DNA from: Plantactinospora mayteni
Lineage (GTDB): Bacteria > Actinomycetota > Actinomycetes > Mycobacteriales > Micromonosporaceae
NCBI RefSeq assembly: GCF_016862935.1
Contig: NZ_BONX01000036.1
Coordinates: 248,001 to 312,000 of the forward strand
Length of the DNA stretch: 64,000 nt
Direction: 5' to 3'
Positions 51,807 through 63,366 of this stretch are shown here, one piece after another. Position 1 is the first letter of the stretch, and each line of letters starts with the position of its first letter. Below the pieces are notes generated by a model that saw only the letters and a program-made list of their open reading frames with translations, had not been told where the DNA came from and ran no database searches. The position numbers and the translations under genes are program-made.

Positions 51807-52408
51807 CAGCGCAACACCTCTCATGGACACGACCAGAATTACCTTAACGAACGGTAACCCGCCTGGCGGTCGCCCGGGAACTCCCCCGGGCAACGAGCCC
51901 GGAAGCGGCGCGGTCCGGCGTACCTGAAAGCCGGCGTACCCGAAAGCCGGCGTACCCGAAAGCCGGCGTACCCGAAAGCGGCGTACCCGAAAGGGAGCCG
52001 GCACGCCCGGCGGGACAGCCGGCGGCGTCTCCGGAAGGACGGCCGGCGTGCCCCGGTCGACACGCCGCCCCCCGACCGGGGGAGCCCATCCGGCCATACC
52101 CCTAGGGAGTCCTCCGAGGAGGCTCCGACACGAGTCGGGTCGATGACACCCTGCTGCACTTGAGGTAACTGAGCGCTATTAACGAGGGCGATCGCAAAAG
52201 GTTGCGAGATATGGCATTCCATGACGCACAACCGCACAGCGAACCGGCAATCTGGCGCTGCGACTTGTGGCGCGCCTAGGGGTTGGTTACCGTGGCCCAC
52301 GGTTGTCATCAGGTCTATGACCGGGCGACAACGCGGTCGACCGGAGTTCACCTCGATCGTCGAACATCGGTCACGGTCGCAACACTGACCCGACAACGGA
52401 GGGTGTGC
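51807..52408. other. Divergent spacer between icmB-like gene and M23 peptidase gene
   Basis: 602 bp without a supported gene. It contains the 16-bp minisatellite at 51915-51993 and, closer to the M23 gene, an AT-richer stretch (52140-52260). A 15-bp inverted repeat (ACCGTGG-C-CCACGGT) lies at 52289-52303. I looked for a c-di-AMP (ydaO) riboswitch here, since these often precede cell-wall hydrolase genes, and did not see its conserved segments. Confidence 0.5.
51915..51993. repeat. 16-bp minisatellite, five units
   Basis: Four units of CCGGCGTACCCGAAAG (the first with one change) are followed by a fifth that lacks one C. The 16-bp period is not a multiple of three, which fits non-coding DNA. 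Confidence 0.95.
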
Positions 52409-53137
52409 GTGCGCCAGCGCCTGTCGTCTGAGCCCGATCGCTATCGAGGGCGACGCCGCGTCCCCACACCTCCGCGCAGCCGCTACGCCGCTGTCGTCAC
52501 CACCGCGTTCGTCGGAGCCGGCGTCGTCGCGCTCGGCGCGGGAGCCCTGCCCGACGCCAAGGCGGTCAGCCCCTCCGCGCTGGCGGACCTGGAGAAGGCC
52601 GCCGCCACCAGCGAGGACGTGAGCGCGCGGTCCGCCGACGCCCAGCAGGCTCCGGCGTCCCGGGACCACCGGGACGACGGGCTCGCCTCCACCCTGGCCG
52701 CCGCCCCCGACGTCTGGCGGCTTCCGCTCGAGAACTACAACTTCACCTCGCCGTACGGGATGAAGTGGAACAAGCTGCACGCCGGCATCGACCTGGCCGC
52801 CCCCGAGGGGACCCCGTACAACGCGGTGCACGCGGGCACGGTGACCAAGGCCGGCTGGTTCGGCGGATACGGCTACTGCGTGATCGTCCAGCACTCCGAC
52901 GGCACCGAGTCCATCTACGGGCACTCGTCGTCGCTGCTGGTCAGCGAGGGGCAGGAGGTCAAGGCCGGCGACCCGCTCGGTCTGGTCGGCAACACCGGCC
53001 ACTCCTACGGCTCACACCTGCACCTTGAGCTGCATGTCAACGGCAAGCCGACCGACCCGATCCCCTACCTCCGGGACCGGAAAGTGGACATCCAGCTGAA
53101 AGTCGACGATCCGTACGCCGACGTGGCCGCCTCCTGA
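52409..53137 (+). CDS. Secreted M23 family metallopeptidase (LytM domain) 1
   Basis: 242 residues. A basic N-terminus, then a signal-like hydrophobic segment (AAVVTTAFVGAGVVALGAGAL) ending DAKA; a helical stretch; and the LytM domain in the last 130 residues with zinc ligands in HAGIDLAAPEGTP (HxxxD) and SHLHLELH (HxH). It would cut peptide cross-links in peptidoglycan or serve as an amidase activator; both histidine motifs are intact, so activity is likely. GTG 52409 has GGAGGG at a spacing of five; the frame upstream is unsupported. A U-tract terminator follows. Confidence 0.92.
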   Translation: MRQRLSSEPDRYRGRRRVPTPPRSRYAAVVTTAFVGAGVVALGAGALPDAKAVSPSALADLEKAAATSEDVSARSADAQQAPASRDHRDDGLASTLAAAPDVWRLPLENYNFTSPYGMKWNKLHAGIDLAAPEGTPYNAVHAGTVTKAGWFGGYGYCVIVQHSDGTESIYGHSSSLLVSEGQEVKAGDPLGLVGNTGHSYGSHLHLELHVNGKPTDPIPYLRDRKVDIQLKVDDPYADVAAS

Positions 53138-53157
53138 CTCGACGTCACGCCGCTTTG

Positions 53158-53192
53158 CCGCCCGACCGAGACCGGTTGGGCGGTTTTCTTTT
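53158..53192 (+). terminator. Rho-independent terminator with U-tract
   Basis: A 10-bp stem with one G-T pair (53158-53167 with 53174-53183), six-base loop, then TTTTCTTTT. This is the only terminator in the window with a long U-tract. It separates the two M23 genes. Confidence 0.92.
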
Positions 53193-53407
53193 GCGCCGAG
53201 CCGGCGCGAAGTTCCCTGCGCCACACCGCGCCGGGTGACCGGTCCCACAGCCAGGTCGCGCAGCACAGGGTCCGTCAAGGGCGATTTCCGGCATAACTCC
53301 GGTGCTGACTTCCGGTCGCCGTCCGTCATCGGCAACCCGGCGCCGAGCTGGCAGCGCCGCGCCGACCACCATGTGCGGGTCCACGCCCCACCCAGAAGGG
53401 ACCCGTC

Positions 53408-54229
53408 GTGCCGGAGACCGATCCGAACCAGCCCGAGACGACCGAGGACCGGGCCGAGGCCGAGCCCACCGCTAGCCGGCGTACCGGACCGTCCGGGGTC
53501 GCCCGGCACCGGATCGGCGGCCGGGGTCGGTACCTCGTACCCGGGCTGGTCGCCCTGCTCGGCCTCGGCGTGGCTGGTGCGGTTACGGCAGTGGTCGTCG
53601 GCGACGACCGGTCGACCGACCGGGTGTCGGTGGCCGCGGAGGAGTCGGCCCGGGCCGCCGCCGGGCAGCGTGCCGACCGGTCCGCGCGGGAGGCCACCGC
53701 CACCCCGACGGCCTCCCCGACGGCCTCCCCGACCCCGAGCGCCGCCGCGACCACCCGGCCGCCGACCACCAAGCCGAGCCGGAGCAGCGGGTCCGCGAAG
53801 GCGGCCAGCCCGACCGCGAGCCGGAAGGCCGCTGCCTGGGTCGACCCGCTGCCGGGCGCCAGTGTCACGTCCTGCTACGGGATGCGCTGGGGAGCGATGC
53901 ACGCCGGGATCGACCTGGCGATGCCGGCGGAGACCCCGATCCGGGCCGCCGGAGCCGGCACGGTGGTCGAGGCCGGCTGGGCCTTCGCCGGGTACGGCAT
54001 CTCGGTGGTCGTCGACCACGGCAACGGCTGGCTCACCCACTACGCCCACCAGAGCCGGACCGTGGTCAGCGTCGGGCAGCGGGTCACGCCCGGCCAGGTG
54101 ATCGGGTACGAGGGTGCCACCGGCGACGTCACCGGGCCGCACCTGCACTTCGAGGTGCACAACGGGCTGTGGAACCAGGTCGACCCCGCACCGTGGATGC
54201 GAGCCCGTGGGGTGGACCTGGGCTGCTGA
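53408..54229 (+). CDS. Membrane-anchored M23 family metallopeptidase (LytM domain) 2
   Basis: 273 residues. An acidic cytoplasmic N-terminus of about 40 residues, one membrane span (YLVPGLVALLGLGVAGAVTAVVVG is residues 42-65), an Ala/Thr/Pro/Ser-rich wall-spanning linker with TASPTASPTPS, and a LytM domain from about residue 145: SCYGMRWGAMHAGIDLAMP (residues 152-170) and GPHLHFEVH with the zinc ligands intact. GTG 53408, AAGGGA upstream. It is a paralogue of the preceding gene but has a signal-anchor rather than a cleavable signal, and its own promoter past the terminator. Confidence 0.92.
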   Translation: MPETDPNQPETTEDRAEAEPTASRRTGPSGVARHRIGGRGRYLVPGLVALLGLGVAGAVTAVVVGDDRSTDRVSVAAEESARAAAGQRADRSAREATATPTASPTASPTPSAAATTRPPTTKPSRSSGSAKAASPTASRKAAAWVDPLPGASVTSCYGMRWGAMHAGIDLAMPAETPIRAAGAGTVVEAGWAFAGYGISVVVDHGNGWLTHYAHQSRTVVSVGQRVTPGQVIGYEGATGDVTGPHLHFEVHNGLWNQVDPAPWMRARGVDLGC

Positions 54230-54280: not shown

Positions 54281-56686
54281 TCAGAGTTTGTCGATCGGGG
54301 CGTGCCGGAGCACCAGCCAGAGCGTCTGGTCACCGAAGTCGATCTGAGCCCGGGCACCCGAACCGTGCCCCTCGACCGCCAGCACCCGGCCGAGGCCGTA
54401 CCGCTGGTGGTTGACCCGGTCCCCGGCGGCGACCTTGGGCGGCTGCTTCAGCTCGCTCGCGGTGCTGAGCCGACTGCCGTCGATGCCGAGCCGTGAGGCG
54501 AGCTGGGCGGCCTTCGGCGTACCCCCGGAGAAGCCGCCGCCCCGGTGCGCGCCGGACCGGTCCTCGGCGCCGGACCGGCCACCCACGCCGCCGCCGGTCC
54601 CCGACCAGGAGGTGTAGGCGGCCCCGGTGCGCTCCCAGCGGACCAGGTCGCCCGGCAACTCGTCGACGAACCGGGATGGCGGGTTGTAGGACGGCTGCCC
54701 CCAGGCCGACCGGGTCACCGCCCGGGACAGGTAGAGCCGCTTGCGGGCCCGGGTGATCCCGACGTACGCCAGCCGGCGCTCCTCCTCCAGCTCCCGGTTG
54801 TCGCCGAGCGCCCGCAGGTGCGGGAAGACGCCGTCCTCCAGCCCGGTCAGGAAGACCACCGGGAACTCCAGCCCCTTGGCGGTGTGCAGGGTCATCAGGG
54901 TGACCACGCCCTGGTGGTCGGGGTCGTCCGACGGCACCTGGTCGGCGTCGGCGACCAGCGCGACCTGCTCCAGGAAGCCGGCCAGGGTGGCGCCGGGCAC
55001 GCCCTCGTCGGCCAGCGCCTCCACCCGTTCGGTGTATTCCCGGGCGACGCTCACCAGTTCCTGGAGGTTCTCCACCCGGCCGGCGTCCTGCGGGTCGATG
55101 CTCTCCTCCAGCTCGCCGAGGTAGCCGGAGCGGGTGAGGACGGCCTCCAGCACCTCCTCCGGCAGGGCGGTGGTGGCCAGCTCCCGCAGCCCGTCCAGCA
55201 GGGTGACGAACTCGGCGATCGCGTTGGCCGACCGGGTGGAGATGCCCGGCGCCTCGGACGCCCGGCGCAGCGCGGCGCCGAACGAGATCCGGTCCCGGGT
55301 GGCCAGCGCCTCCACGCAGGCCTCGGCCCGGTCGCCGATGCCCCGGCGCGGAGTGTTCAGGATCCGCCGGATGCTCACCGTGTCGTCGTCGTTGACCACG
55401 GCGCGGAGGTACGCCAGGGCGTCCCGGACCTCCTTGCGCTCGTAGAACCGGACCCCGCCGACCACCTTGTAGGGGAGCCCGACCCGGATGAAGACCTCCT
55501 CGAAGACCCGGGACTGCGCGTTGGTGCGGTAGAAGACCGCCACGTCACCGGGGCGGGCCGCAGCGGCGTCGCAGAGCCGGTCGATCTCCCGGCCCACCCA
55601 GTCCGCCTCGGCGTGCTCGGTGTCGGCGACGTAGCCGACGATCTGCTCCCCGGCGCCCTCCTCGCTCCAGAGCCTCTTCGGCTTGCGGGAGCTGTTGCGC
55701 TCGATCACCGCGTTGGCCGCGTTGAGGATCGTCTGGGTGGAGCGGTAGTTCTGCTCCAGCAGGATCGTCCGGGCGTCGGTGAAGTCCCGCTCGAACTCCA
55801 GGATGTTCCGGATGGTGGCGCCCCGGAAGGCGTAGATCGACTGGTCGGCGTCGCCGACCACGCACAGTTCGGCCGGCTCGACCCCGGGAGTACCGCCGAC
55901 CAACTCCTTGACCAGGGTGTACTGCGCGTGGTTGGTGTCCTGGTATTCGTCGACCAACACGTGCCGGAAGCGGCGGCGGTAGCTCTCCGCGACGTGCGGG
56001 TGCGACTGGAGCAGGTGCACCGTGGTCATGATCAGGTCGTCGAAGTCGAGGGCGTGCGCCTCGGTCAGCCGCCGCTGGTAGAGCGTGTACGCCTCGGCCA
56101 GCGCCCGCTCGTTCGGCCCCTTCGCCCGGGCGGCGAACGTCTCCGGGTCGGTCAGCTCGTTCTTCAGGTTCGACACCTGGGTGATCAGGCCCCGGGCCGG
56201 ATAGCGCTTCGGGTCGAGGTCCAGCTCCCGGGTGACCATCTGCATCAGCCGGCGCGAGTCGTCGGCGTCGTAGATCGAGAACGTCGACTTCAGGCCGGCG
56301 TGCTCGTGCTCGGCCCGGAGGATGCGTACGCAGGCGGAGTGGAACGTCGACACCCACATCAGCCGGGCTCTCGGCCCGACCAGCGCGGCGACCCGGTCCT
56401 TCATCTCCCCGGCGGCCTTGTTGGTGAAGGTGATCGCGATGATCTGCCCCGGATGCACGTCCCGGGCGGCGAGCAGGTAGGCGATCCGGTGGGTCAGCAC
56501 CCGGGTCTTGCCCGAGCCGGCGCCCGCCACGATCAGCAGCGGTGCCCCGGAGTGGGTCACCGCATCCCGCTGTGGCCCGTTCAGCCCGGCCAGCAGGGCC
56601 TGCGGGTCGAGGCCGGACGGCCGGCGCCGGGGCGCGTCCTGGGCCGGAGGGACGGAGGGCGGCGGGGGTTCGAAGAGAGCATGCAT
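54281..56686 (-). CDS. pcrA: ATP-dependent DNA helicase PcrA/UvrD
   Basis: 801-residue superfamily 1A 3'-5' helicase for repair and removal of RecA and stalled polymerase. Motif Q LNGPQRDAV, motif I AGAGSGKTRVL, II VDEYQDTNHAQY, III VVGDADQSIYAFRGA, IV LLEQNYRSTQTIL, V LMTLHTAKGLEFP, VI AYVGITRARKRL. The C-terminal tail (DRVNHQRYGLGRVL...DFGDQTLWLV) is the Tudor-like domain that contacts RNA polymerase. ATG 56686. Divergent from the chorismate mutase leader, the same neighbour pair as uvrD1 and chorismate mutase in mycobacteria. Confidence 0.97.
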   Translation of the reverse strand: MHALFEPPPPSVPPAQDAPRRRPSGLDPQALLAGLNGPQRDAVTHSGAPLLIVAGAGSGKTRVLTHRIAYLLAARDVHPGQIIAITFTNKAAGEMKDRVAALVGPRARLMWVSTFHSACVRILRAEHEHAGLKSTFSIYDADDSRRLMQMVTRELDLDPKRYPARGLITQVSNLKNELTDPETFAARAKGPNERALAEAYTLYQRRLTEAHALDFDDLIMTTVHLLQSHPHVAESYRRRFRHVLVDEYQDTNHAQYTLVKELVGGTPGVEPAELCVVGDADQSIYAFRGATIRNILEFERDFTDARTILLEQNYRSTQTILNAANAVIERNSSRKPKRLWSEEGAGEQIVGYVADTEHAEADWVGREIDRLCDAAAARPGDVAVFYRTNAQSRVFEEVFIRVGLPYKVVGGVRFYERKEVRDALAYLRAVVNDDDTVSIRRILNTPRRGIGDRAEACVEALATRDRISFGAALRRASEAPGISTRSANAIAEFVTLLDGLRELATTALPEEVLEAVLTRSGYLGELEESIDPQDAGRVENLQELVSVAREYTERVEALADEGVPGATLAGFLEQVALVADADQVPSDDPDHQGVVTLMTLHTAKGLEFPVVFLTGLEDGVFPHLRALGDNRELEEERRLAYVGITRARKRLYLSRAVTRSAWGQPSYNPPSRFVDELPGDLVRWERTGAAYTSWSGTGGGVGGRSGAEDRSGAHRGGGFSGGTPKAAQLASRLGIDGSRLSTASELKQPPKVAAGDRVNHQRYGLGRVLAVEGHGSGARAQIDFGDQTLWLVLRHAPIDKL

Positions 56687-56795
56687 CGCCTGGCGAGTCT
56701 ATGCCGCCGGGGAGACAACGTACGCCTCCGCCGGGCCCGTACCCGGTCGGCCGGATTGTTCCCGCAGGTCGGGTACCCGGGCATTGCCGATCCGC

Positions 56796-56824
56796 TTGCC
56801 AAGACACCGGGGGCTGGGCATACT
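56796..56824 (+). promoter_or_regulatory. Promoter of the chorismate mutase leader
   Basis: TTGCCA at 56796-56801, a 17-bp spacer, and CATACT at 56819-56824. Six bases later comes the GTG of a leader peptide, so the transcript is probably leaderless. This is one of the best -35/-10 pairs in the window. Confidence 0.65.
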
Positions 56825-56830
56825 CAACCC

Positions 56831-56899
56831 GTGATCCATCGGGCGCAGTCCTACTTTTACTACGGCTCCGGGAGTCCGGCAGCCGTAGGTCGCGCCTGA
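56831..56899 (+). CDS. Aromatic-rich leader peptide of chorismate mutase
   Basis: A 22-codon frame from GTG 56831 to TGA 56897-56899. Codons 8-11 are Tyr, Phe, Tyr, Tyr (SYFYYGSG), a run that would slow ribosomes when charged Tyr- or Phe-tRNA is scarce. No Shine-Dalgarno, but the promoter places the transcript start at or next to the GTG. It ends 13 bases before a strong terminator stem and 91 bases before the chorismate mutase ATG. The position, composition and structure match attenuator leader peptides of amino-acid operons; function is inferred. Confidence 0.6.
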   Translation: MIHRAQSYFYYGSGSPAAVGRA

Positions 56900-56943
56900 A
56901 CATGACCTACGAAAAGCCCCGGGCTCCTGGAGCCCGGGGCTTT
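56860..56943 (+). promoter_or_regulatory. Attenuator region: competing hairpins and terminator
   Basis: Segment 1 (56860-56867, overlapping the last Tyr codon) pairs perfectly over 8 bp with segment 2 (56881-56888). Segment 2, shifted by three bases (56884-56891), also pairs over 8 bp with segment 3 (56904-56911). Then follows a terminator: arms of 15 bases at 56913-56927 and 56929-56943, in practice a 12- to 13-bp stem with a small loop, rich in GC and ending CTTTCG. Segments 1:2 and 2:3 exclude each other. A ribosome stalled at the Tyr codons would cover segment 1 and free segment 2. How 2:3 would block the terminator, which it only abuts, is not clear by eye. Confidence 0.6.
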
Positions 56944-56990
56944 CGCGTCGGGATCCAGGCACCGGGGACCTAGCTGGCAAGGAGGACCCC

Positions 56991-57320
56991 ATGGCGGCAG
57001 AGGTGGCAGCAGAGGTGGCAGAGCTTCCCGCCGAGGCGAACGACGCCGAACCCGAGACCGGGACGAGCGCGCCGGACGCCTCACAGCACATCCTCGGGCT
57101 GCGGGAGCGGATCGACGAGATCGACCGTGAGCTGATCGCCCTCTGGCAGGAGCGCGCCGCGCTCTCCCAGCAGGTCGGCCGGACCCGGATGGCCTCCGGC
57201 GGCACCCGGCTGGTCCTCTCCCGGGAGCGGGAGATCCTGGACCGGTTCCGGGAGGCGCTCGGCGCCGACGGTACCCAGCTCGCCCTGCTGCTGCTCCGGG
57301 CCGGCCGCGGCCCGCTCTGA
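56991..57320 (+). CDS. Chorismate mutase, AroQ type
   Basis: 109 residues. Converts chorismate to prephenate, the branch point to Phe and Tyr. After a 30-residue acidic, Ala/Glu-rich N-terminus comes the all-helical CM_2 domain: LRERIDEIDRELIALWQERAAL (residues 37-58) with the first catalytic Arg, VGRTRMASGG, and SREREILDRFREAL. It lacks a signal peptide, so it is the cytoplasmic enzyme, like the mycobacterial one that needs DAHP synthase as a partner. AAGGAGG lies five bases before ATG 56991. Preceded by an attenuator-like leader. Confidence 0.93.
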   Translation: MAAEVAAEVAELPAEANDAEPETGTSAPDASQHILGLRERIDEIDRELIALWQERAALSQQVGRTRMASGGTRLVLSREREILDRFREALGADGTQLALLLLRAGRGPL

Positions 57321-57503: not shown

Positions 57504-58529
57504 CTACTCGACCGCGTGCACCACGTCCCGCTCCTCGGCGAAATGACAAGCGCTCGGGTGCGCCGAATGCTCCCGATCCGCCAGTGCCGGCTCCTGGCTG
57601 GCGCAGATGTCCTGCGCCTTCCAGCACCGGGTGCGGAACCGGCAGCCCGACGGCGGGTTGGCCGGCGACGGCACGTCACCCTCCAGGACGATCTGGTCCC
57701 GCTGGCCGCGCAGGGTCGGGTCCGGCACCGGCACCGCCGAGAGCAGCGCCTGGGTGTACGGATGCGTCGGCCGCTCGTAGATCTCGTCCTCGACACCGAT
57801 CTCGACGACCTTGCCGAGGTACATCACGGCCACCCGGTCGGCGATGTGCCGCACCACCGACAGGTCGTGCGCGATGAAGATGTACGACAGCCCCAGCTCG
57901 TCCTGCAACCGCTCCAGCAGGTTGATCACCTGCGCCTGGATCGACACGTCCAGCGCCGAGACCGGCTCGTCACAGACGATGATCTCCGGCTTGAGCGCCA
58001 GCGCCCGGGCGATCCCGATCCGCTGCCGCTGCCCACCCGAGAACTGGTGCGGATAGCGGTTGATGTGCTCCGGGTTCAACCCGACCAGGTCGAGCAGTTC
58101 CCGGACCCGCTGCTTCCGCTCGGCGGCCGGCACGACCTCCGGGTGGATGTCGAACGGCTCGCCGATGATGTCGCCGACCGTCATCCGCGGGTTCAACGAG
58201 GTGTACGGGTCCTGCAACACCATCTGGATGTTGCGCCGGGCCTTGCGCAGCTCGCCGCCGGAGAGCCGGGTCATGTCCTGGCCCCGGACGTTGATCGCGC
58301 CACTGGTCGGCTTCTCCAGCCCGACCAGCAGCTTGGCCAGCGTCGACTTGCCGCAACCGGACTCGCCCACCACGCCGAGGGTCTCGCCCCGGCGCAGTTG
58401 CAGGTCGACGCCGTCGACCGCGCGTACCGCACCGATCTTCTTCTGGAAGACGATGCCCCGGGTGATCGGGAAGTGCTTGACCAGCTCGTGGGTCTCCAGC
58501 ACGACCTCGTTACTTGACGGCTGGCTCAT
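57504..58529 (-). CDS. Peptide-type ABC importer 2, ATPase F
   Basis: 341 residues. Walker [51 protein letters not shown], and the C-terminal cysteine set ([14 protein letters not shown]...C). Nearly co-linear with the ATPase at 38353-39429; long stretches such as the Walker A to Q-loop region are almost the same, but it lacks that protein's Gly/Pro-rich N-terminal extension. It overlaps ATPase D of its own operon by 20 bp. Confidence 0.95.
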   Translation of the reverse strand: MSQPSSNEVVLETHELVKHFPITRGIVFQKKIGAVRAVDGVDLQLRRGETLGVVGESGCGKSTLAKLLVGLEKPTSGAINVRGQDMTRLSGGELRKARRNIQMVLQDPYTSLNPRMTVGDIIGEPFDIHPEVVPAAERKQRVRELLDLVGLNPEHINRYPHQFSGGQRQRIGIARALALKPEIIVCDEPVSALDVSIQAQVINLLERLQDELGLSYIFIAHDLSVVRHIADRVAVMYLGKVVEIGVEDEIYERPTHPYTQALLSAVPVPDPTLRGQRDQIVLEGDVPSPANPPSGCRFRTRCWKAQDICASQEPALADREHSAHPSACHFAEERDVVHAVE

Positions 58530-59556
58530 CGCCGACCACCTCCGTCCAGAAATGGCACCGCGCCGTCCGAGCCGGATCCACCTCGTACTGCGGCGGCGAC
58601 GGGTCGGCCCGGCACACGTCGCGGGCGTACGCGCACCGCGGGTGGAACGGGCAGCCGGCCGGGATCCGGGTCAGGTTGGGCGGCAGTCCCTTGATCACGT
58701 TGAGCTGCTGCCCCTTGAGGTCCAGCCGGGGAATCGACTCCAGCAGGGCCTTGGTGTACGGGTGCGCCGGCCGGGCGTAGATGTCCAGTACCGGCGCCTC
58801 CTCGACCACCTTCCCGGCGTACATCACCGAGATCCGGTCGGCCACGTCGGCGACCACCCCCATGTCGTGGGTGATCAGGATCAGCCCCATGTTCCGTTCC
58901 CGCCGCAGCTCGGCGAGGAGGTTCATGATCTGGGCCTGCACCGTCACGTCCAGCGCGGTGGTCGGCTCGTCCGCGATCAGCACCTTCGGGTCCAGCGCCA
59001 GCGCCATCGCGATCATGACGCGCTGCCGCATGCCACCGGAGAACTGGTGCGGATAGTCGTTGATCCGCTGCCGGGCGGCCGGGATCTTGACCAGGTCGAG
59101 CAGTTCGATCGACCGCTTCCGGGCGTCCTGCCGGGACATCCCGCGATGCACCCGGAACAGCTCGGCGATCTGCCAGCCGACCGGGAAGACCGGGTTCAGC
59201 GCGGAGAGCGCGTCCTGGAAGATCATCGCGACGTGGTTGGCGCGTACCCTGCGGCGCTGCTCCTCGGGGAGCTTGAGCAGGTCGACGCCGCGGTAGCGGA
59301 TCGCACCTCCGGTGACGAACCCGGGCGGCGTGTCGAGGATGCCCATGATCGCCTGGGCGGTGACGGACTTGCCACAGCCGGACTCACCCAGGATCGCCAG
59401 CGTCTCGCCGGGATCCAGGTGCAGGTCCACCCCGTTGATCGCGCGGGCGATCCCGACCTGGGTACGGAACTCGACGTGCAGACCCTCGACCTCCAGCAGC
59501 CGGGCGGACGAGTCCAACCCGGGCAGGACGTCGATCTCTGCCTTGATATCGGTCAT
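58510..59556 (-). CDS. Peptide-type ABC importer 2, ATPase D
   Basis: 348 residues, OppD/DppD class: Walker [51 protein letters not shown]-terminal [14 protein letters not shown]...C cluster. ATG 59556, 8 bp after permease C of the operon. Co-linear with 37323-38366. It pairs with ATPase F to power the importer. Confidence 0.95.
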
Positions 59557-59564
59557 GGGTCAGC

Positions 59565-60503
59565 TCACCGCAGCCTCGGGTCGAAGGCGTCGCGGATCGC
59601 GTCGCCGAGCATGATGAACGCCAGCACGGTCATCGCCAGGAAGATCGACGGCCAGACCAGCGGGGTGGCCGTCTCCCGGACGTACGGCGCCGCCGTCGAG
59701 ATGTCGATCCCCCAGGAGATCGCGTTCCCCTTCAGACCGACGCCGAGGAAGGTCAGGGTGGCCTCGGTGGAGATGTTGACCCCGAGCAGGATGGTCAGCA
59801 CCACCACGAACGGCGCCGCCGCGTTCGGCAGGATGTGCCGGAACATCAGCCGGCCGGGACCGGCTCCGAGCATCCGGGCCGCCGCCACGTAGTCCTGGTT
59901 CTTCGCCGAGATGACCGACGACCGCATGATCCGGGCGCCGGTGGTCCAGGTCAGCACACCGAGGGTGAAGACCACCGCCCAGAAGCCCGTGTCCTGCGGG
60001 TCGGCGGAGAGCCGCCGGGCCAGCACGATCGCCGCGAGCAGGGTGGGGATGCCCAGCACGATGTCGATGCCCCGGGCGAGCACGGCGTCGATCCAGCCGC
60101 CGAAGTAGCCGGCCGCCATGCCCACGATCAGGCCGATCACCCCGGCGATGATGGTCGCGAAGAGGCCGATCAGCACCGAGTTGCGGGCGCCGTAGATCGT
60201 CCGGGCGTAGACGTCGCAGCCCTGGAAGTTGTAGCCGAAGATGGCCGAGCCGCTCGGCCCCTGGTGCTGCCGGGACAGCGCGCACGCGTCCGGGTCGGCC
60301 GAGGTGAACAGGCTCGGGAAGGCCGCCATCACGACGACCAGTACCACCAGGACGGCGGCGGCCCAGAAGATCCAGTTACGCCGCAGGTCGTCCCAGGCAT
60401 CCCCGGTCAGACTGCGTGGCTTCTCCGGGCCGCCGTCCGGCGACACCGGCACACCGGCGGCGCCGGGTACCTCCGCCTGGGCGACGGATTCGACGTTACT
60501 CAT
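59565..60503 (-). CDS. Peptide-type ABC importer 2, permease C
   Basis: 312 residues with OppC_N start (LTGDAWDDLRRNWIFWAA), six spans and the EAA loop KNQDYVAAARMLGAGPG; ends GDAIRDAFDPRLR as in the paralogue. The periplasmic CALSRQH...GCDVYARTIYGAR cysteines are conserved between the two copies. ATG 60503. Separated from permease B by 123 bp, whereas the other operon has only 9 bp there. Confidence 0.95.
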   Translation of the reverse strand: MSNVESVAQAEVPGAAGVPVSPDGGPEKPRSLTGDAWDDLRRNWIFWAAAVLVVLVVVMAAFPSLFTSADPDACALSRQHQGPSGSAIFGYNFQGCDVYARTIYGARNSVLIGLFATIIAGVIGLIVGMAAGYFGGWIDAVLARGIDIVLGIPTLLAAIVLARRLSADPQDTGFWAVVFTLGVLTWTTGARIMRSSVISAKNQDYVAAARMLGAGPGRLMFRHILPNAAAPFVVVLTILLGVNISTEATLTFLGVGLKGNAISWGIDISTAAPYVRETATPLVWPSIFLAMTVLAFIMLGDAIRDAFDPRLR

Positions 60504-60549
60504 CGGACGCCTCGCTTACTCATGCCGCCACCGCGCTCCGCCCGGCGAC

Positions 60550-60632
60550 GCCACGAGGACAGATTCACACTGACCTGACTGATTCGTTCGGTTGACTCAC
60601 TGAGCTGACCGATTCGTTCGCTTCGCTCACTC
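60550..60632 (-). repeat. Imperfect direct repeat in the permease B-permease C spacer
   Basis: Two imperfect copies of a CTGACNGATTCGTTCG...TGACTCACT(GA)-like segment lie in the 123-bp gap between the permease genes. It explains why this gap is longer than in importer 1. No promoter is evident. Confidence 0.5.
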
Positions 60633-61553
60633 ATAGCGGATCCTCGGGTCGAGTACCGCGTACAACAGATCGACGACCAGGTTGACCACCAGGAAGACGA
60701 TCACCAGGATGCTGACGAAGCCGACCACCAGCGGGCCGTCCTCGGTCCGGATCCCACGGAACAGGTTGAAGCCGACGCCCGGGATGTTGAAGACACCCTC
60801 GGTGACGATCGCCCCGGCCATCAGGTTGCCCAGGTCGACACCGATCAGCGTCACGACCGGGATCAGCGAGTTGCGCAGTACGTGCACGCCGATCACCCGC
60901 CGGTTCGCCAGTCCCTTGGCCCGGGCGGTACGGACGTAGTCCGAGCGGAGGTTCTCCGCCACCGAGGCCCGGGTGACCCGGATCTGGGTGGCGATCACCA
61001 GACAGCTCAACACCACCGCCGGCAGGATGAGTTGGTAGAACCCCGGTTCGGCACCGGCTGTCGCCGGGAACCAGTGCAACTGCACCCCGAAGAGGAGTTG
61101 CGCCAGCGGGGCCAGCACCACGATCGGCAGGGAGAGCAGCACCAGCGTGATGATCAGCGTGGTGGTGTCGAAGATCCCGCCGCGACGGATGCCGGAGACG
61201 ATGCCGGCGGTGACGGCGACGAGCGCCGAGATGATGATCGCGAAGACCGCCAGCCGGATGGTCACCGGCCAGGCCTGCTGCATCATCTCGCTGATCGGCC
61301 GGTTGGTCAGTGAGATCCCGAAGTCCCCGGTGAGCAGGCCACGCATGTAGTGGCCATATTGGAGGATGAACGGGTCGTCCAGATGATACCTTTCGGTGAG
61401 CGCCTGCCGGACGTTCTCCGGTAGCGGGCGCTCACCCGCCAGGGCCTGGAGCGGGTCGTCCTGGTTGGCGAACATCAGCGCGTACACGATGAAGGTGGCC
61501 CCGAAAAACGTCAGGACCCCTTGCAGCACGCGCCGCACGAAGTAGCGGAACAT
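60627..61553 (-). CDS. Peptide-type ABC importer 2, permease B
   Basis: 308 residues, OppB/DppB class. Starts MFRYFVRRVLQGVLTFFGA, has six spans, the loop ENLRSDYVRTARAKGL, and ends VLDPRIRYE. ATG 61553 is chosen because AAGGA lies seven bases upstream and the paralogue begins identically; the open frame upstream is spurious. Forms the channel with permease C. Confidence 0.95.
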   Translation of the reverse strand: MFRYFVRRVLQGVLTFFGATFIVYALMFANQDDPLQALAGERPLPENVRQALTERYHLDDPFILQYGHYMRGLLTGDFGISLTNRPISEMMQQAWPVTIRLAVFAIIISALVAVTAGIVSGIRRGGIFDTTTLIITLVLLSLPIVVLAPLAQLLFGVQLHWFPATAGAEPGFYQLILPAVVLSCLVIATQIRVTRASVAENLRSDYVRTARAKGLANRRVIGVHVLRNSLIPVVTLIGVDLGNLMAGAIVTEGVFNIPGVGFNLFRGIRTEDGPLVVGFVSILVIVFLVVNLVVDLLYAVLDPRIRYE

Positions 61554-61628
61554 ATCCAAGTCCTTAGAGACGAGCATCGGTGACTGCCTGGTGGGCAGCA
61601 GACCGTGATGCAGCACGGTAGCGACCGC

Positions 61629-61718
61629 AGCCTCACCGGTCCCGGTCGCCGGGGCCGGTGAGGCTCGTACGGACGGTCCGATCGACCCAGGCTAGGCCGG
61701 GTGGACCGGACCGTCCGT
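61629..61718 (-). terminator. Two hairpins between binding-protein gene 2 and permease B
   Basis: Two perfect 11-bp stems, 61629-61639 with 61655-61665 and 61669-61679 with 61708-61718, follow the binding-protein stop on the minus strand. They match in position the hairpin at 35360-35394 in importer 1 and probably reduce read-through to the membrane subunits. Confidence 0.7.
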
Positions 61719-61734
61719 CGCTGGAGCAGTCAGG

Positions 61735-63366
61735 TCAGCTCGTGGCCTCGATCTTGAGGATCTCGACCTTCTGGAACTTGTCGACCTCGACGTTCTTGAC
61801 CCGCTCCGAGTGGCCGAAGACGTTCTGGCCGAGCCGCAGCGGAATCACCGGCATGTCCCGGGCGAGGATGTCCTCGGCCTGCTGCCAGAGCTTGATGGCC
61901 TCGTCCTCGGTCGGCGCGGCCGAGCCCTGCTTGACCAGGTTGTCGAACTCCGGGTTGCTGTAGCCGTAGTAGTTCGACGAACCGCCGGTCCCGTACAGCG
62001 GGCCGAGGTAGTTCTCCATCAGCGGGTAGTCCATGATCCAGCCGAGCCGGATCATGCCGACGTCTTCCTTGTTCTCGACCTTGGTGAGCAGGTCGGCGAA
62101 CTTCGGCTCGCCGACACCGACGCAGTCCACGCCCAGGTTGGTCTTGAGCTGGTTGCAGGTCGCGTCCACCCACGCCTTGTGACCACCGTCGGCGTTGTAG
62201 GTGATCTTGATCTGCTTCGGGCCGCCGGCAGCGTCGTACGCCGCCTTGGCCTTGGCCGGGTCGTAGGTGCAGGCCTCGCCGCAGCTGTTCTCGCGGTAGC
62301 CGGCCACCGCCGGGGAGACGAACGACGTCGCCGGGGTCTGCGAGCCACGGAAGACGTTGTCGGTGATCTCCTTGCGGTTGATCGCCATCGAGATCGCCTT
62401 ACGGACCTCGACCTTCGAGTACTGCGAGAGGAAGGTCGGGAAGCCGACGAACTGGAAGACCGAGTTCGAGCTGGTCTTGAAGCGGTCACCCAGGTCGGCC
62501 GGGGCGGTGGCCAGGTTCTCGATCGGAATCTGGGTCACCACGTCCAGGGCGCCACCCATCAGGTCGGCGTACTGGGCGGTCTGCTCCTGGTAGATCTTGT
62601 AGGTGACGCCGCCCACCTTCGGCTTCTCACCCGGGTAGGCGTCGTAGCGCTCGACCTCGATCTTCGAGTCGTGCTGCCAGGTGCCCTTGATCTTGAACGG
62701 GCCGTTGCCGATCGGGGCCTGCTCGTAGTCCTCCTTGAGCACGCCCTCGGAGGCCCACGCCGCCGCGGGCAGCGGGTAGAAGGTGGTGTAGCCCATGACC
62801 GAGCGCCAGCCGGAGAACGGCTCGCTCAGCGTGACGGTGAAGGTCAGGTCGTCGACCTTCTTCAGACCGGTCAGGGTCTTCGCCTTCGGGTCCGGAGCCT
62901 TCTGCGGGCCGTCGCCGTCCGGGTCCTCGGACTGGAGGTCCTTGTAGCCCTCGACCCGCTCCATGAAGTAGGAGCCGCCGTTGCCGTTCGGGCCGTACGC
63001 CGCGTGGTTCCAGGCGTTGATGTAGTTGTCGGCGCCGACCTTCTCACCGTTGTGGAAGGTGTAGCCGTCCTTGAGCTTGACCGTCCAGACCTTGTTGTCG
63101 GTCGACTCGACCGACTCCGCGGCAACCGTGTACGGCTTGTTGTCGGCGTCGAAGTCCACCAGCGGGCTGAAGAGTGCGGCCAGCACCTCGGCACCGTTGG
63201 ACTCGGTGGTGTTGGAGGGGATCAGGTGCTGGGGCTCGCCGATGCCGATCGAGACCAGGGCGTCAGCCGCCGAGGTCTCGTCGTCGCCGCCACCGCTGCA
63301 GCCTGCCGCCAACAACATTATGGCGGTCGCTCCGACCGCCATCTTTAACGGGAATTGCCCGCGCAT
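61735..63366 (-). CDS. Peptide-type ABC importer 2, substrate-binding lipoprotein
   Basis: 543 residues, the same length as its paralogue at 33711-35342, with lipobox LLAAGC (Cys at residue 23). Shared landmarks: IGEPQHLIPSNT, LKDGYTFHNGEKV, NGPFKIKGTWQHDSK, CGEAC, YNADGGHKAWVDATCNQL (residues 388-405) and YYGYSNPEFDNL. Differences concentrate in the central ligand-facing region, so the two probably bind related but distinct ligands. GAGGAGG lies nine bases before ATG 63366. First gene of its operon. Confidence 0.95.
   Translation of the reverse strand: MRGQFPLKMAVGATAIMLLAAGCSGGGDDETSAADALVSIGIGEPQHLIPSNTTESNGAEVLAALFSPLVDFDADNKPYTVAAESVESTDNKVWTVKLKDGYTFHNGEKVGADNYINAWNHAAYGPNGNGGSYFMERVEGYKDLQSEDPDGDGPQKAPDPKAKTLTGLKKVDDLTFTVTLSEPFSGWRSVMGYTTFYPLPAAAWASEGVLKEDYEQAPIGNGPFKIKGTWQHDSKIEVERYDAYPGEKPKVGGVTYKIYQEQTAQYADLMGGALDVVTQIPIENLATAPADLGDRFKTSSNSVFQFVGFPTFLSQYSKVEVRKAISMAINRKEITDNVFRGSQTPATSFVSPAVAGYRENSCGEACTYDPAKAKAAYDAAGGPKQIKITYNADGGHKAWVDATCNQLKTNLGVDCVGVGEPKFADLLTKVENKEDVGMIRLGWIMDYPLMENYLGPLYGTGGSSNYYGYSNPEFDNLVKQGSAAPTEDEAIKLWQQAEDILARDMPVIPLRLGQNVFGHSERVKNVEVDKFQKVEILKIEATS

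What the first reader, a model, noticed from the sequence alone, without database searches (positions are those of the whole stretch)
56796..56990. Tyr/Phe leader peptide and attenuator in front of chorismate mutase
Seen: a TTGCCA-17-CATACT promoter, a GTG six bases later opening a 22-codon frame with Tyr-Phe-Tyr-Tyr at codons 8-11, two mutually exclusive 8-bp pairings (56860-56867 with 56881-56888; 56884-56891 with 56904-56911), a strong GC terminator stem at 56913-56943, and then a well-spaced Shine-Dalgarno and the chorismate mutase ATG. Known: amino-acid operons such as pheA of enterobacteria use leader peptides rich in the end product. Inference: Tyr/Phe supply controls transcription into chorismate mutase. 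I do not know of a described attenuator for actinobacterial AroQ. The leaderless leader peptide would make it simpler than the classical type. The weak point is that pairing 2:3 abuts rather than overlaps the terminator.
Basis: partly seen in the sequence, partly recalled or inferred. Interest (0 to 1): 0.82.

Follow-up and report, generated by a model that had tools for sequence, protein, structure and literature searches.

The report
Phe/Tyr attenuator before chorismate mutase
A short, ribosome-read Phe/Tyr sensor in front of the chorismate mutase gene, conserved in several actinomycete families, probably lets these bacteria make the enzyme only when phenylalanine or tyrosine runs short.

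Summary
The unit is conserved: 142 of 150 family genomes match it, in 41 of 44 genera, and it stands in front of chorismate mutase (CM) in loci I read from 12 further families of the class. In 100 of 100 aligned loci the leader frame opens with ATG/GTG 6-7 bases after the -10 position, and a run of Phe and Tyr codons ends at a hairpin, P2. X:X' co-varies between families (0 of 20000 permutations as good); Y:Y' does not (p 0.39). Phe codons before P2 are universal there; Tyr before P2 occurs in 51 of 100. Similar leaders precede DAHP synthase: 8 of 24 loci scanned, all 8 with Trp, Phe and Tyr codons. The mechanism is inferred from sequence; no RNA data were available. I found no description of a CM attenuator in the library searched (nine searches). 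New member of a known kind.

The parts
56796..56824 (+). promoter: TTGCCA -35 (56796-56801), 17-base spacer, CATACT -10 (56819-56824)
   Evidence: in 100 of 100 aligned loci the start codon lies 12 or 13 nt after the first base of the -10 position, which reads CATACT, CACACT or CAGACT in 77 of 100; no transcript start was measured
56831..56899 (+). leaderless leader peptide frame, 22 codons, GTG start, TGA stop
   Evidence: in-frame ATG/GTG and stop in 100 of 100 loci
56852..56863 (+). sensor codons Tyr-Phe-Tyr-Tyr (codons 8-11)
   Evidence: Phe and Tyr in the 6-codon run in 100 of 100 loci
56861..56887 (+). P2, anti-antiterminator hairpin TACGGCTCCGG(gagt)CCGGcaGCCGTA; its 5' arm begins with the last Tyr codon
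   Evidence: 97.0% of cells paired in 51 sequences; -17.7 kcal/mol
56871..56879 (+). X, 5' strand of the outer antiterminator helix (P2 loop and 3' arm)
   Evidence: 8 of its 9 pairs were counted: 92.6% of cells paired; coupled to the terminator arm across families
56884..56891 (+).
   Evidence: not coupled to Y' across families
56904..56911 (+). Y', 3' strand of the inner antiterminator helix
56919..56927 (+). X', 3' strand of the outer antiterminator helix; lies inside the terminator's 5' arm (its last base in the loop)
56913..56943 (+). intrinsic terminator stem-loop (14 bp, CTG loop), short U-tract TTTCG
   Evidence: 94.5% of cells paired, 4 of 14 pairs with two-sided changes; -29.0 kcal/mol
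56979..56985 (+). Shine-Dalgarno AAGGAGG of chorismate mutase
56991..57320 (+). chorismate mutase, AroQ type, 109 aa, regulated gene
   Evidence: NF005894 111.7 bits (cut-off 73) and TIGR01808 76.0 (52.15); PDB 2qbv E 1.1e-19

Best explanation
This is a ribosome-mediated transcription attenuator that makes expression of chorismate mutase depend on charged tRNA-Phe and, in this family, also tRNA-Tyr. Transcription starts at or next to GTG 56831 and a ribosome begins on the leaderless frame. With enough Phe/Tyr it runs to the TGA and covers Y/Y' (and the end of P2); X' stays free, the terminator 56913-56943 forms and RNA polymerase stops. With Phe/Tyr short, the ribosome waits on codons 8-11, covers the 5' arm of P2 and leaves X and Y free; Y:Y' zips up and X invades the terminator's 5' arm (X:X') before its 3' arm is made, so transcription runs on into CM. 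Without translation P2 forms and holds X, which favours termination. Shown by computation: anatomy, conservation, co-variation of X with the terminator arm, the energy switch at the sensor codons. Inferred: transcript start, ribosome waiting, antitermination in the cell, the amino acids sensed.
For: Conserved unit in 142 of 150 family genomes and, read directly, in 69 of 70 fetched family loci (L073 gave no hit). CM lies downstream on the same strand in 69 of those 69, in 40 of 40 order-level loci and 22 of 40 class-level loci. Leader: 100 of 100 with a start codon 12-13 nt from the first -10 base, Phe and Tyr in the run, an in-frame stop; Trp in 3 of 100. X against the terminator arm of its own genome -19.09 kcal/mol, against arms of other families -14.73; 0 of 20000 family permutations as good. 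Two-sided changes at X:X' in the family (such as A-U to C-G). In f15 a G-C pair has become C-G (GGAGTCCGG/CCGGGCTCC to GGACTCCGG/CCGGAGTC: 17 of 19 for X, 16 of 19 for the arm), and the inner ten bases of the terminator arms are fully complementary in only 2 of 19, which X:X' explains. Energies: antiterminator -30.8, terminator -29.0, P2 -17.7; with the A site on codons 6-10 the antiterminator stays at -30.8, at 11 it is -24.2, from 12 on X is lost. Across 100 loci upstream RNA pairs with the terminator arm (>=5 pairs) in 100 of 100 with the A site one codon before P2, in 42 of 100 three codons later; mean energy -24.2 against -13.7. Four leaders (L044, L045, L071, L072) have frame-shifted tails but keep the helices: RNA, not peptide, is conserved there.
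Against: No transcript, 3'-end or ribosome-profiling data. With the whole RNA present the terminator together with Y:Y' (-42.9) beats the antiterminator even with a waiting ribosome, so antitermination must be kinetic. The switch is not clean in all homologues: five or more pairs to the arm reappear at later ribosome positions, in 21 of 38 family loci up to six codons past the P2 start. The U-tract is short. Own X pairing is no better than swapped arms in f12 (0 of 2 better), f5 (0 of 1), 4 of 38 of the window's family and 1 of 6 of f2. Y:Y' fails the between-family test (p 0.39). In the family alignment the number of X:X'/Y:Y' pairs with two-sided changes is reached by 62 of 500 shuffles, though cells with such changes and the covariation score by 0 of 500. 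Of 10 CM loci found without regard to the RNA, a strict scan saw the unit in 4; with the RNA-model hits and reading by eye, 9 of 10 have an adjacent Phe-Tyr leader, L301 lacks it. Prior comparative work found no conserved RNA structure before Phe/Tyr operons of actinobacteria (passage).
Confidence: 0.86

Rival explanations
1. The short frame encodes a functional small protein; its conserved tail (GSGSPAAVGRA) is kept for the peptide, and the hairpin is only the terminator of that small gene.
For: The peptide tail is highly similar within the family.
Against: Four family leaders have other reading frames in the tail yet keep P2, Y:Y' and the X region; outside the family the tail is unrelated; X co-varies with the terminator arm; CM follows in all 69 family and 40 order-level loci read.
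Confidence: 0.03
2. Regulation is real but works on translation initiation or through Rho instead of intrinsic termination, the hairpin being a roadblock or an mRNA-processing signal.
For: Short U-tract at the stem; cysteine leader frames of a mycobacterium are called translation attenuators in a paper of which I saw passages (PMC13236596).
Against: The SD 56979-56985 lies 35 bases after the stem and outside all conserved helices; the extrapolated distance from leader to CM varies from 93 to 302 in the visible rows; the G+C stem is strongly conserved (94.5% of cells paired).
Confidence: 0.08
3. The leader senses only Phe; the Tyr codons are a by-product of the P2 stem and of codon drift.
For: Phe lies in the 5 codons before P2 in 100 of 100 loci, Tyr in 51 of 100 and in 0 of 18 of f33 and f8; the Tyr at the P2 start pairs in P2; for the C. 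glutamicum aroF leader a review states that Phe but not Tyr matters (PMC11802643, passage).
Against: In the window's family Tyr lies before P2 in 35 of 38, outside the helices I defined; the A site on codon 8, 9 or 10 leaves the same antiterminator fold.
Confidence: 0.3
4. Chance: a promoter-like hexamer, a short frame and a G+C hairpin in a G+C-rich intergenic region.
For: Short frames are common; Rfam has no matching family at its gathering scores.
Against: Conservation and co-variation; the strict scan finds 0 of 34 reverse complements and 0 of 170 shuffled upstream regions, against 12 of 34 real ones.
Confidence: 0.01

Closest known systems
Corynebacterium glutamicum aroR leader before aroF (DAHP synthase); Neshat et al. 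2014, known to me only through passages of PMC11802643 and PMC4046766
   Same: actinobacterial leader peptide with Phe-Tyr-Phe before an aromatic-pathway gene, ribosome-mediated attenuation
   Different: controls DAHP synthase, not chorismate mutase; described as Phe-responsive only; I had no sequence of it to compare helices
Enterobacterial pheL-pheA attenuator (recalled; named in a passage of PMC11802643)
   Same: Phe-rich leader, terminator/antiterminator, chorismate mutase activity downstream (CM-prephenate dehydratase)
   Different: leader with its own ribosome-binding site and Phe only (recalled); no match of this element to any Rfam leader family at gathering score
Leaderless trpL/leuL/ilvL attenuators of Streptomyces lividans (PMC8079986, passages)
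   Same: leaderless leader peptides followed by hairpins before amino-acid genes in an actinomycete
   Different: Trp, Leu, Ile/Val and others; the 8 listed include none for Phe/Tyr and none before chorismate mutase
ilvB1 and whiB7 uORF attenuators of mycobacteria (PMC13236596, PMC4128351, passages)
   Same: uORF-coupled intrinsic termination in actinobacteria
   Different: other signals and genes; Rv0948c is named in neither main text, and chorismate not in PMC13236596 (not looked for in the other)

Membership tests
ribosome-mediated (leader-peptide) transcription attenuators | short translated-looking frame with a run of codons for the end product | tested here: met
   100 of 100 loci with Phe and Tyr in the run, start and stop in frame
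ribosome-mediated (leader-peptide) transcription attenuators | mutually exclusive terminator and antiterminator sharing a strand | tested here: met
   X' lies in the terminator 5' arm; co-variation and energies
ribosome-mediated (leader-peptide) transcription attenuators | sensor codons placed so that a waiting ribosome switches the fold | tested here: met
   switch between codons 10 and 12, sensor codons 8-11; 100 loci, with the reservation that other pairs reappear later in some; computed, not measured
ribosome-mediated (leader-peptide) transcription attenuators | intrinsic terminator with U-tract before the structural gene | tested here: inconclusive
   strong stem, but only TTTCG after it
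ribosome-mediated (leader-peptide) transcription attenuators | read-through responds to the amino acid | not testable with these tools
   needs reporter or RNA-seq
Rfam-described leader families, T-boxes, riboswitches | match above the family's gathering score | tested here: not met
   0 in the window; 24 weak matches in 56780-57010, all below gathering
C. glutamicum aroR-aroF attenuator | controls a DAHP synthase gene | tested here: not met
   the window's leader precedes chorismate mutase; related leaders elsewhere do precede DAHP synthase
C. glutamicum aroR-aroF attenuator | homologous RNA | not tested
   its sequence was not at hand
AroQ chorismate mutase of the Mycobacterium type | model scores over curated cut-off | tested here: met
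   NF005894 and TIGR01808 over cut-off; PDB 2qbv/2vkl Rv0948c E 1.1e-19

The most novel reading that the evidence does not exclude
One old class of leaderless aromatic leader, with the same hairpin/terminator plan, runs through the class Actinomycetes, and its codons follow the pathway: Phe plus Tyr before chorismate mutase (Trp in 3 of 100), but Trp, Phe and Tyr together before DAHP synthase (8 of 8 leaders found by an RNA-independent scan of 24 loci; Trp in 10 of 13 of those found with the RNA model). The DAHP synthase leaders would then be single attenuators that respond to shortage of any of three amino acids, a pan-aromatic sensor.
Probability: 0.6. Interest if true: 0.68.

Novelty: new member of a known kind. 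Interest (0 to 1): 0.6.

Why it matters
A 2005 comparative study of actinobacteria reported no conserved RNA structures before Phe/Tyr operons (PMC1262725, passage), and the list of leader peptides in the Streptomyces lividans transcriptome paper has none (passages). If right, the branch-point enzyme for Phe and Tyr is under transcript attenuation in a large part of the class, including relatives with the mycobacterial type of chorismate mutase and, by my guess at the unnamed groups, Streptomyces. It gives a ready covariance model for annotation, a Phe/Tyr sensor part for actinomycete engineering, and a test case for leaderless leader peptides. The DAHP synthase leaders raise a directly testable question: can one attenuator read three amino acids?

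Tried and rejected
Functional small protein: rejected because frame-shifted tails keep the RNA helices. Rfam riboswitch, T-box or leader family: nothing at gathering score. A second copy in the own genome: the R1 search gave one full-length match and five partial ones up to E 10. Leaders before the own genome's type II DAHP synthase and prephenate dehydratase: no leader with terminator recognised. Rows dropped: L073 (no blastn hit although its genome matched); 18 of 69 family loci as near-duplicates before A1; A3 took 49 and A4 took 38 of the 69 family loci, chosen by me; 29 of 129 rows of A4, second matches of a locus, mostly reverse-strand terminator palindromes; the mixed group of 4 loci was left out of the permutations; 5 of 40 class-level loci (L258, L260, L262, L263, L266) read as chance or terminator-only; 2 of 26 DAHP synthase loci (L299, L300, weak partial matches) were not scanned. 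One search scanned minus-strand loci unturned and was replaced. One search was made while checking this report; it confirmed CM in 69 of 69 family loci (one row had been cut). After that check I corrected the number of further families (12; 7 in the 40 order-level loci) and added results against the reading; the odds did not need changing. One search was a report that lacked fields and was not accepted.

Full report
WHERE. The window is G000:C36:248001-312000 of a 9.84-Mb genome. Its genus is Plantactinospora by inference: two same-genus genomes have contigs of the same length as P. endophytica and P. alkalitolerans records (G002:C21 587615 and G001:C117 17208). The element lies between a helicase gene on the minus strand (54281-56686; UvrD/PcrA by my reading) and a chorismate mutase gene at 56991-57320, which scores over the cut-offs of NF005894 and TIGR01808 and is closest in the PDB to Rv0948c, 2qbv, E 1.1e-19. 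The helicase N-terminus was found upstream on the opposite strand in 56 of 80 named relatives.

OBSERVATION. The RNA 56831-56960 folds at -73.1 kcal/mol against -50.3 +/- 3.7 for shuffles, 0 of 200 as stable. Of 9 leaderless-like short frames in the window this is the only one with three or more aromatic codons in six.

CONSERVATION IN THE FAMILY. With the 195 bases 56796-56990 as query, 142 of 150 family genomes (the own one included) and 41 of 44 genera match at E <= 1e-3; weak matches may be the terminator alone. I read 70 loci from 70 genomes: 69 gave a hit and all 69 have a short frame with an aromatic cluster and a following stem (the scan demanded at least two aromatic residues in six). 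CM is downstream on the same strand in 69 of 69. In 80 named records found by the CM protein (Phytohabitans, Plantactinospora, Micromonospora, Actinoplanes, Asanoa, Dactylosporangium, Hamadaea and others) an aromatic codon motif ending in Tyr-Gly lies upstream in 77 of 80; L161, L163 and L176 did not fit it, and no chance control was run for this motif.

BEYOND THE FAMILY. Model R1 (51 sequences) matches 199 of 298 genomes of the order and 56 of 77 genera at E <= 1e-3 (these include the window's family). I fetched 40 loci from 7 other families (f2, f5, f7, f12, f13, f15, f16): all 40 match full-length and all 40 have CM downstream on the same strand. Model R2 (89 sequences) matches 106 of 345 genomes of the class, some by the terminator only. 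Of 40 fetched, 22 have CM downstream (families f8, f33, f36, f46, f50), 13 have what reads as DAHP synthase, and 5 look like chance. Two of the 13 were tested: these partial frames match DAHP synthase models strongly, though below the whole-protein cut-offs; ten more read alike; L261 is judged from its first codons only.

AN RNA-INDEPENDENT CHECK. CM family NF005894 was sought in 45 class genomes: 10 loci over its cut-off. A strict scan of the upstream DNA found the unit in 4 of 10. L302 and L308 had been matched by R2, and by eye L305, L307 and L310 also have a short frame with adjacent Phe-Tyr codons at a hairpin. L301 does not. The same strict scan found nothing in 34 reverse complements and nothing in 170 first-order shuffles.

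THE LEADER. A4 holds 100 loci: 38 of the family, the 40 order-level loci and the 22 class-level CM loci (10 of these of f8, which is in the order); second matches were dropped. An in-frame ATG or GTG lies 12 or 13 nt from the first base of the -10 position in 100 of 100, so the frame begins at or next to the expected transcript start; a stop follows in 100 of 100 (the script preferred starts 9-18 nt from that base). The -10 position reads CATACT, CACACT or CAGACT in 77 of 100. The six codons ending at the first codon of P2 contain Phe in 100, Tyr in 100, Trp in 3, and at least three aromatic codons in 95 (in L256 the P2 column starts one codon later). The Tyr at the start of P2 is also needed for P2, so it is weak evidence. 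Among the five codons before it Phe occurs in 100 of 100 and Tyr in 51 of 100: in 35 of 38 of the window's family and in 0 of 18 of f33 and f8. I conclude that Phe is the general signal and Tyr an addition here. The peptide tail is not what is conserved: L044, L045, L071 and L072 read the tail in another frame and keep the helices.

THE SWITCH. P2 (56861-56887) and the terminator (56913-56943) are compatible with each other: 95.6% of cells paired in 51 sequences against 24.9-53.0% when slid; 29 cells with two-sided changes (0 of 500 shuffles); six pairs with such changes (21 of 500 shuffles reach that). A nested outer helix removes the problem: X (GGAGTCCGG, the loop and 3' arm of P2) pairs with X' (CCGGGCTCC, in the terminator's 5' arm). 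X, Y, Y' and X' come in nested order, so they form one hairpin that excludes both P2 and the terminator; it folds at -30.8 kcal/mol against -29.0 for the terminator alone and -17.7 for P2. In the family 8 of the 9 X:X' pairs were counted: 92.6% paired, with changes on both sides such as A-U to C-G (MAFFT alignment not fitted to this structure; for X:X' and Y:Y' together the number of pairs with two-sided changes is reached by 62 of 500 shuffles, cells with such changes and the covariation score by 0 of 500). Between families the test is stronger: X against the terminator arm of its own genome gives -19.09 kcal/mol, against arms of other families -14.73, and no permutation of 20000 of the ten family groups did as well. 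X with Y together: -25.01 against -19.45, p 0.00015. Not better than swapped: for X alone f12 (0 of 2 better), f5 (0 of 1), 4 of 38 in f1, 1 of 6 in f2; for X with Y, f12 (0 of 2), f7 (0 of 1), f13 (1 of 2 better) and f8 (8 of 10 better). In f15, X is GGACTCCGG in 17 of 19 and the arm holds CCGGAGTC in 16 of 19: a G-C pair has become C-G. The inner ten bases of the two terminator arms are fully complementary in only 2 of those 19, an imperfection that the X:X' helix explains. Y:Y' alone fails the test between families (p 0.39); it is better than swapped in 38 of 38 of the window's family, 14 of 19 of f15 and 7 of 8 of f33, but 0 of 10 of f8.

THE RIBOSOME. Taking the RNA as free from 13 bases after the first base of the A-site codon (a footprint recalled from toeprinting practice), the antiterminator stays whole with the A site on codons 6-10, weakens to -24.2 at codon 11 and loses X from codon 12. 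Codons 8-11 are Tyr-Phe-Tyr-Tyr. Before codon 8 the 5' arm of P2 becomes free and can catch X first (inference). Over 100 loci, with the A site one codon before P2, upstream RNA pairs with the arm (five pairs or more) in 100 of 100 (mean energy -24.2; terminator -25.8); three codons later in 42 of 100 (mean -13.7). Against a clean switch, five or more pairs reappear at later positions in many loci, for instance six codons past the P2 start in 21 of 38 of the family. Also against it, with the whole RNA present the terminator plus Y:Y' (-42.9) is the better fold, so the switch must be kinetic, as I recall it is in other attenuators.

OTHER PATHWAY GENES. In the own genome only this leader gives a full-length R1 match. 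Before its type II DAHP synthase and its prephenate dehydratase I saw no leader with terminator. In the class, a scan independent of the RNA model found leaders before 8 of 24 DAHP synthase loci, and all 8 contain Trp, Phe and Tyr (2 of the 24 had under 100 bases upstream, and L298 is the own genome's copy, below the family cut-off). Of the 13 DAHP synthase leaders found through R2, 10 contain Trp; L257, L259 and L264 do not, and all 13 were found by likeness to CM leaders. The codons thus follow what the enzyme feeds.

LITERATURE. Seven of nine searches looked for an attenuator of chorismate mutase or of aromatic genes in actinobacteria, the other two for leaderless attenuators in mycobacteria and 3'-end maps in Streptomyces. 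From listings and passages I found none for CM. The nearest is the C. glutamicum aroF leader (Phe-Tyr-Phe; PMC4046766 and PMC11802643, passages). PMC1262725 states that no conserved structures were seen before Phe/Tyr operons (passage). Passages of PMC3890552, PMC4633059, PMC2965389 and PMC4833913 named no CM attenuator ('chorismate' was not among the terms in PMC4833913). Subscription papers, including Neshat et al. 2014, were not readable and D'Halluin et al. 2023 was not held, so a description there cannot be excluded.

VERDICT. It is a new member of a known kind, of good interest because of its breadth and because such elements had been looked for and not seen.

Noticed in passing
L242-L247, L271-L273, L257, L259, L261, L264 (about 100-300) and upstream of L275, L278, L280, L281, L285, L290-L292: Leaders of the same plan before DAHP synthase; the 8 found by the RNA-independent scan all carry Trp, Phe and Tyr codons.
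   Followed up: partly
L044, L045, L071, L072: Leader tails read in another frame while the RNA helices are kept, a natural test that the RNA is what is conserved there.
   Followed up: yes
L317 (reverse strand, upstream of the type II DAHP synthase): A 12-codon frame VRVSPYAFWHAP lies before the own genome's DAHP synthase II; aromatic, but no terminator was recognised and it may be chance.
   Followed up: no
L254, P2 region: One class-level leader has a P2 loop enlarged by a stretch that itself contains TTC-TTT-TAT codons.
   Followed up: no
window 57504-63366, minus strand: What reads as an oligopeptide ABC transporter operon (two ATPases, two permeases, binding protein) lies downstream, convergent with chorismate mutase (not searched).
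   Followed up: no
window 52283-54229: Two neighbouring frames on the plus strand (52283-53137 and 53408-54229) that read as M23-type cell-wall peptidases; recalled motif, not searched.
   Followed up: no
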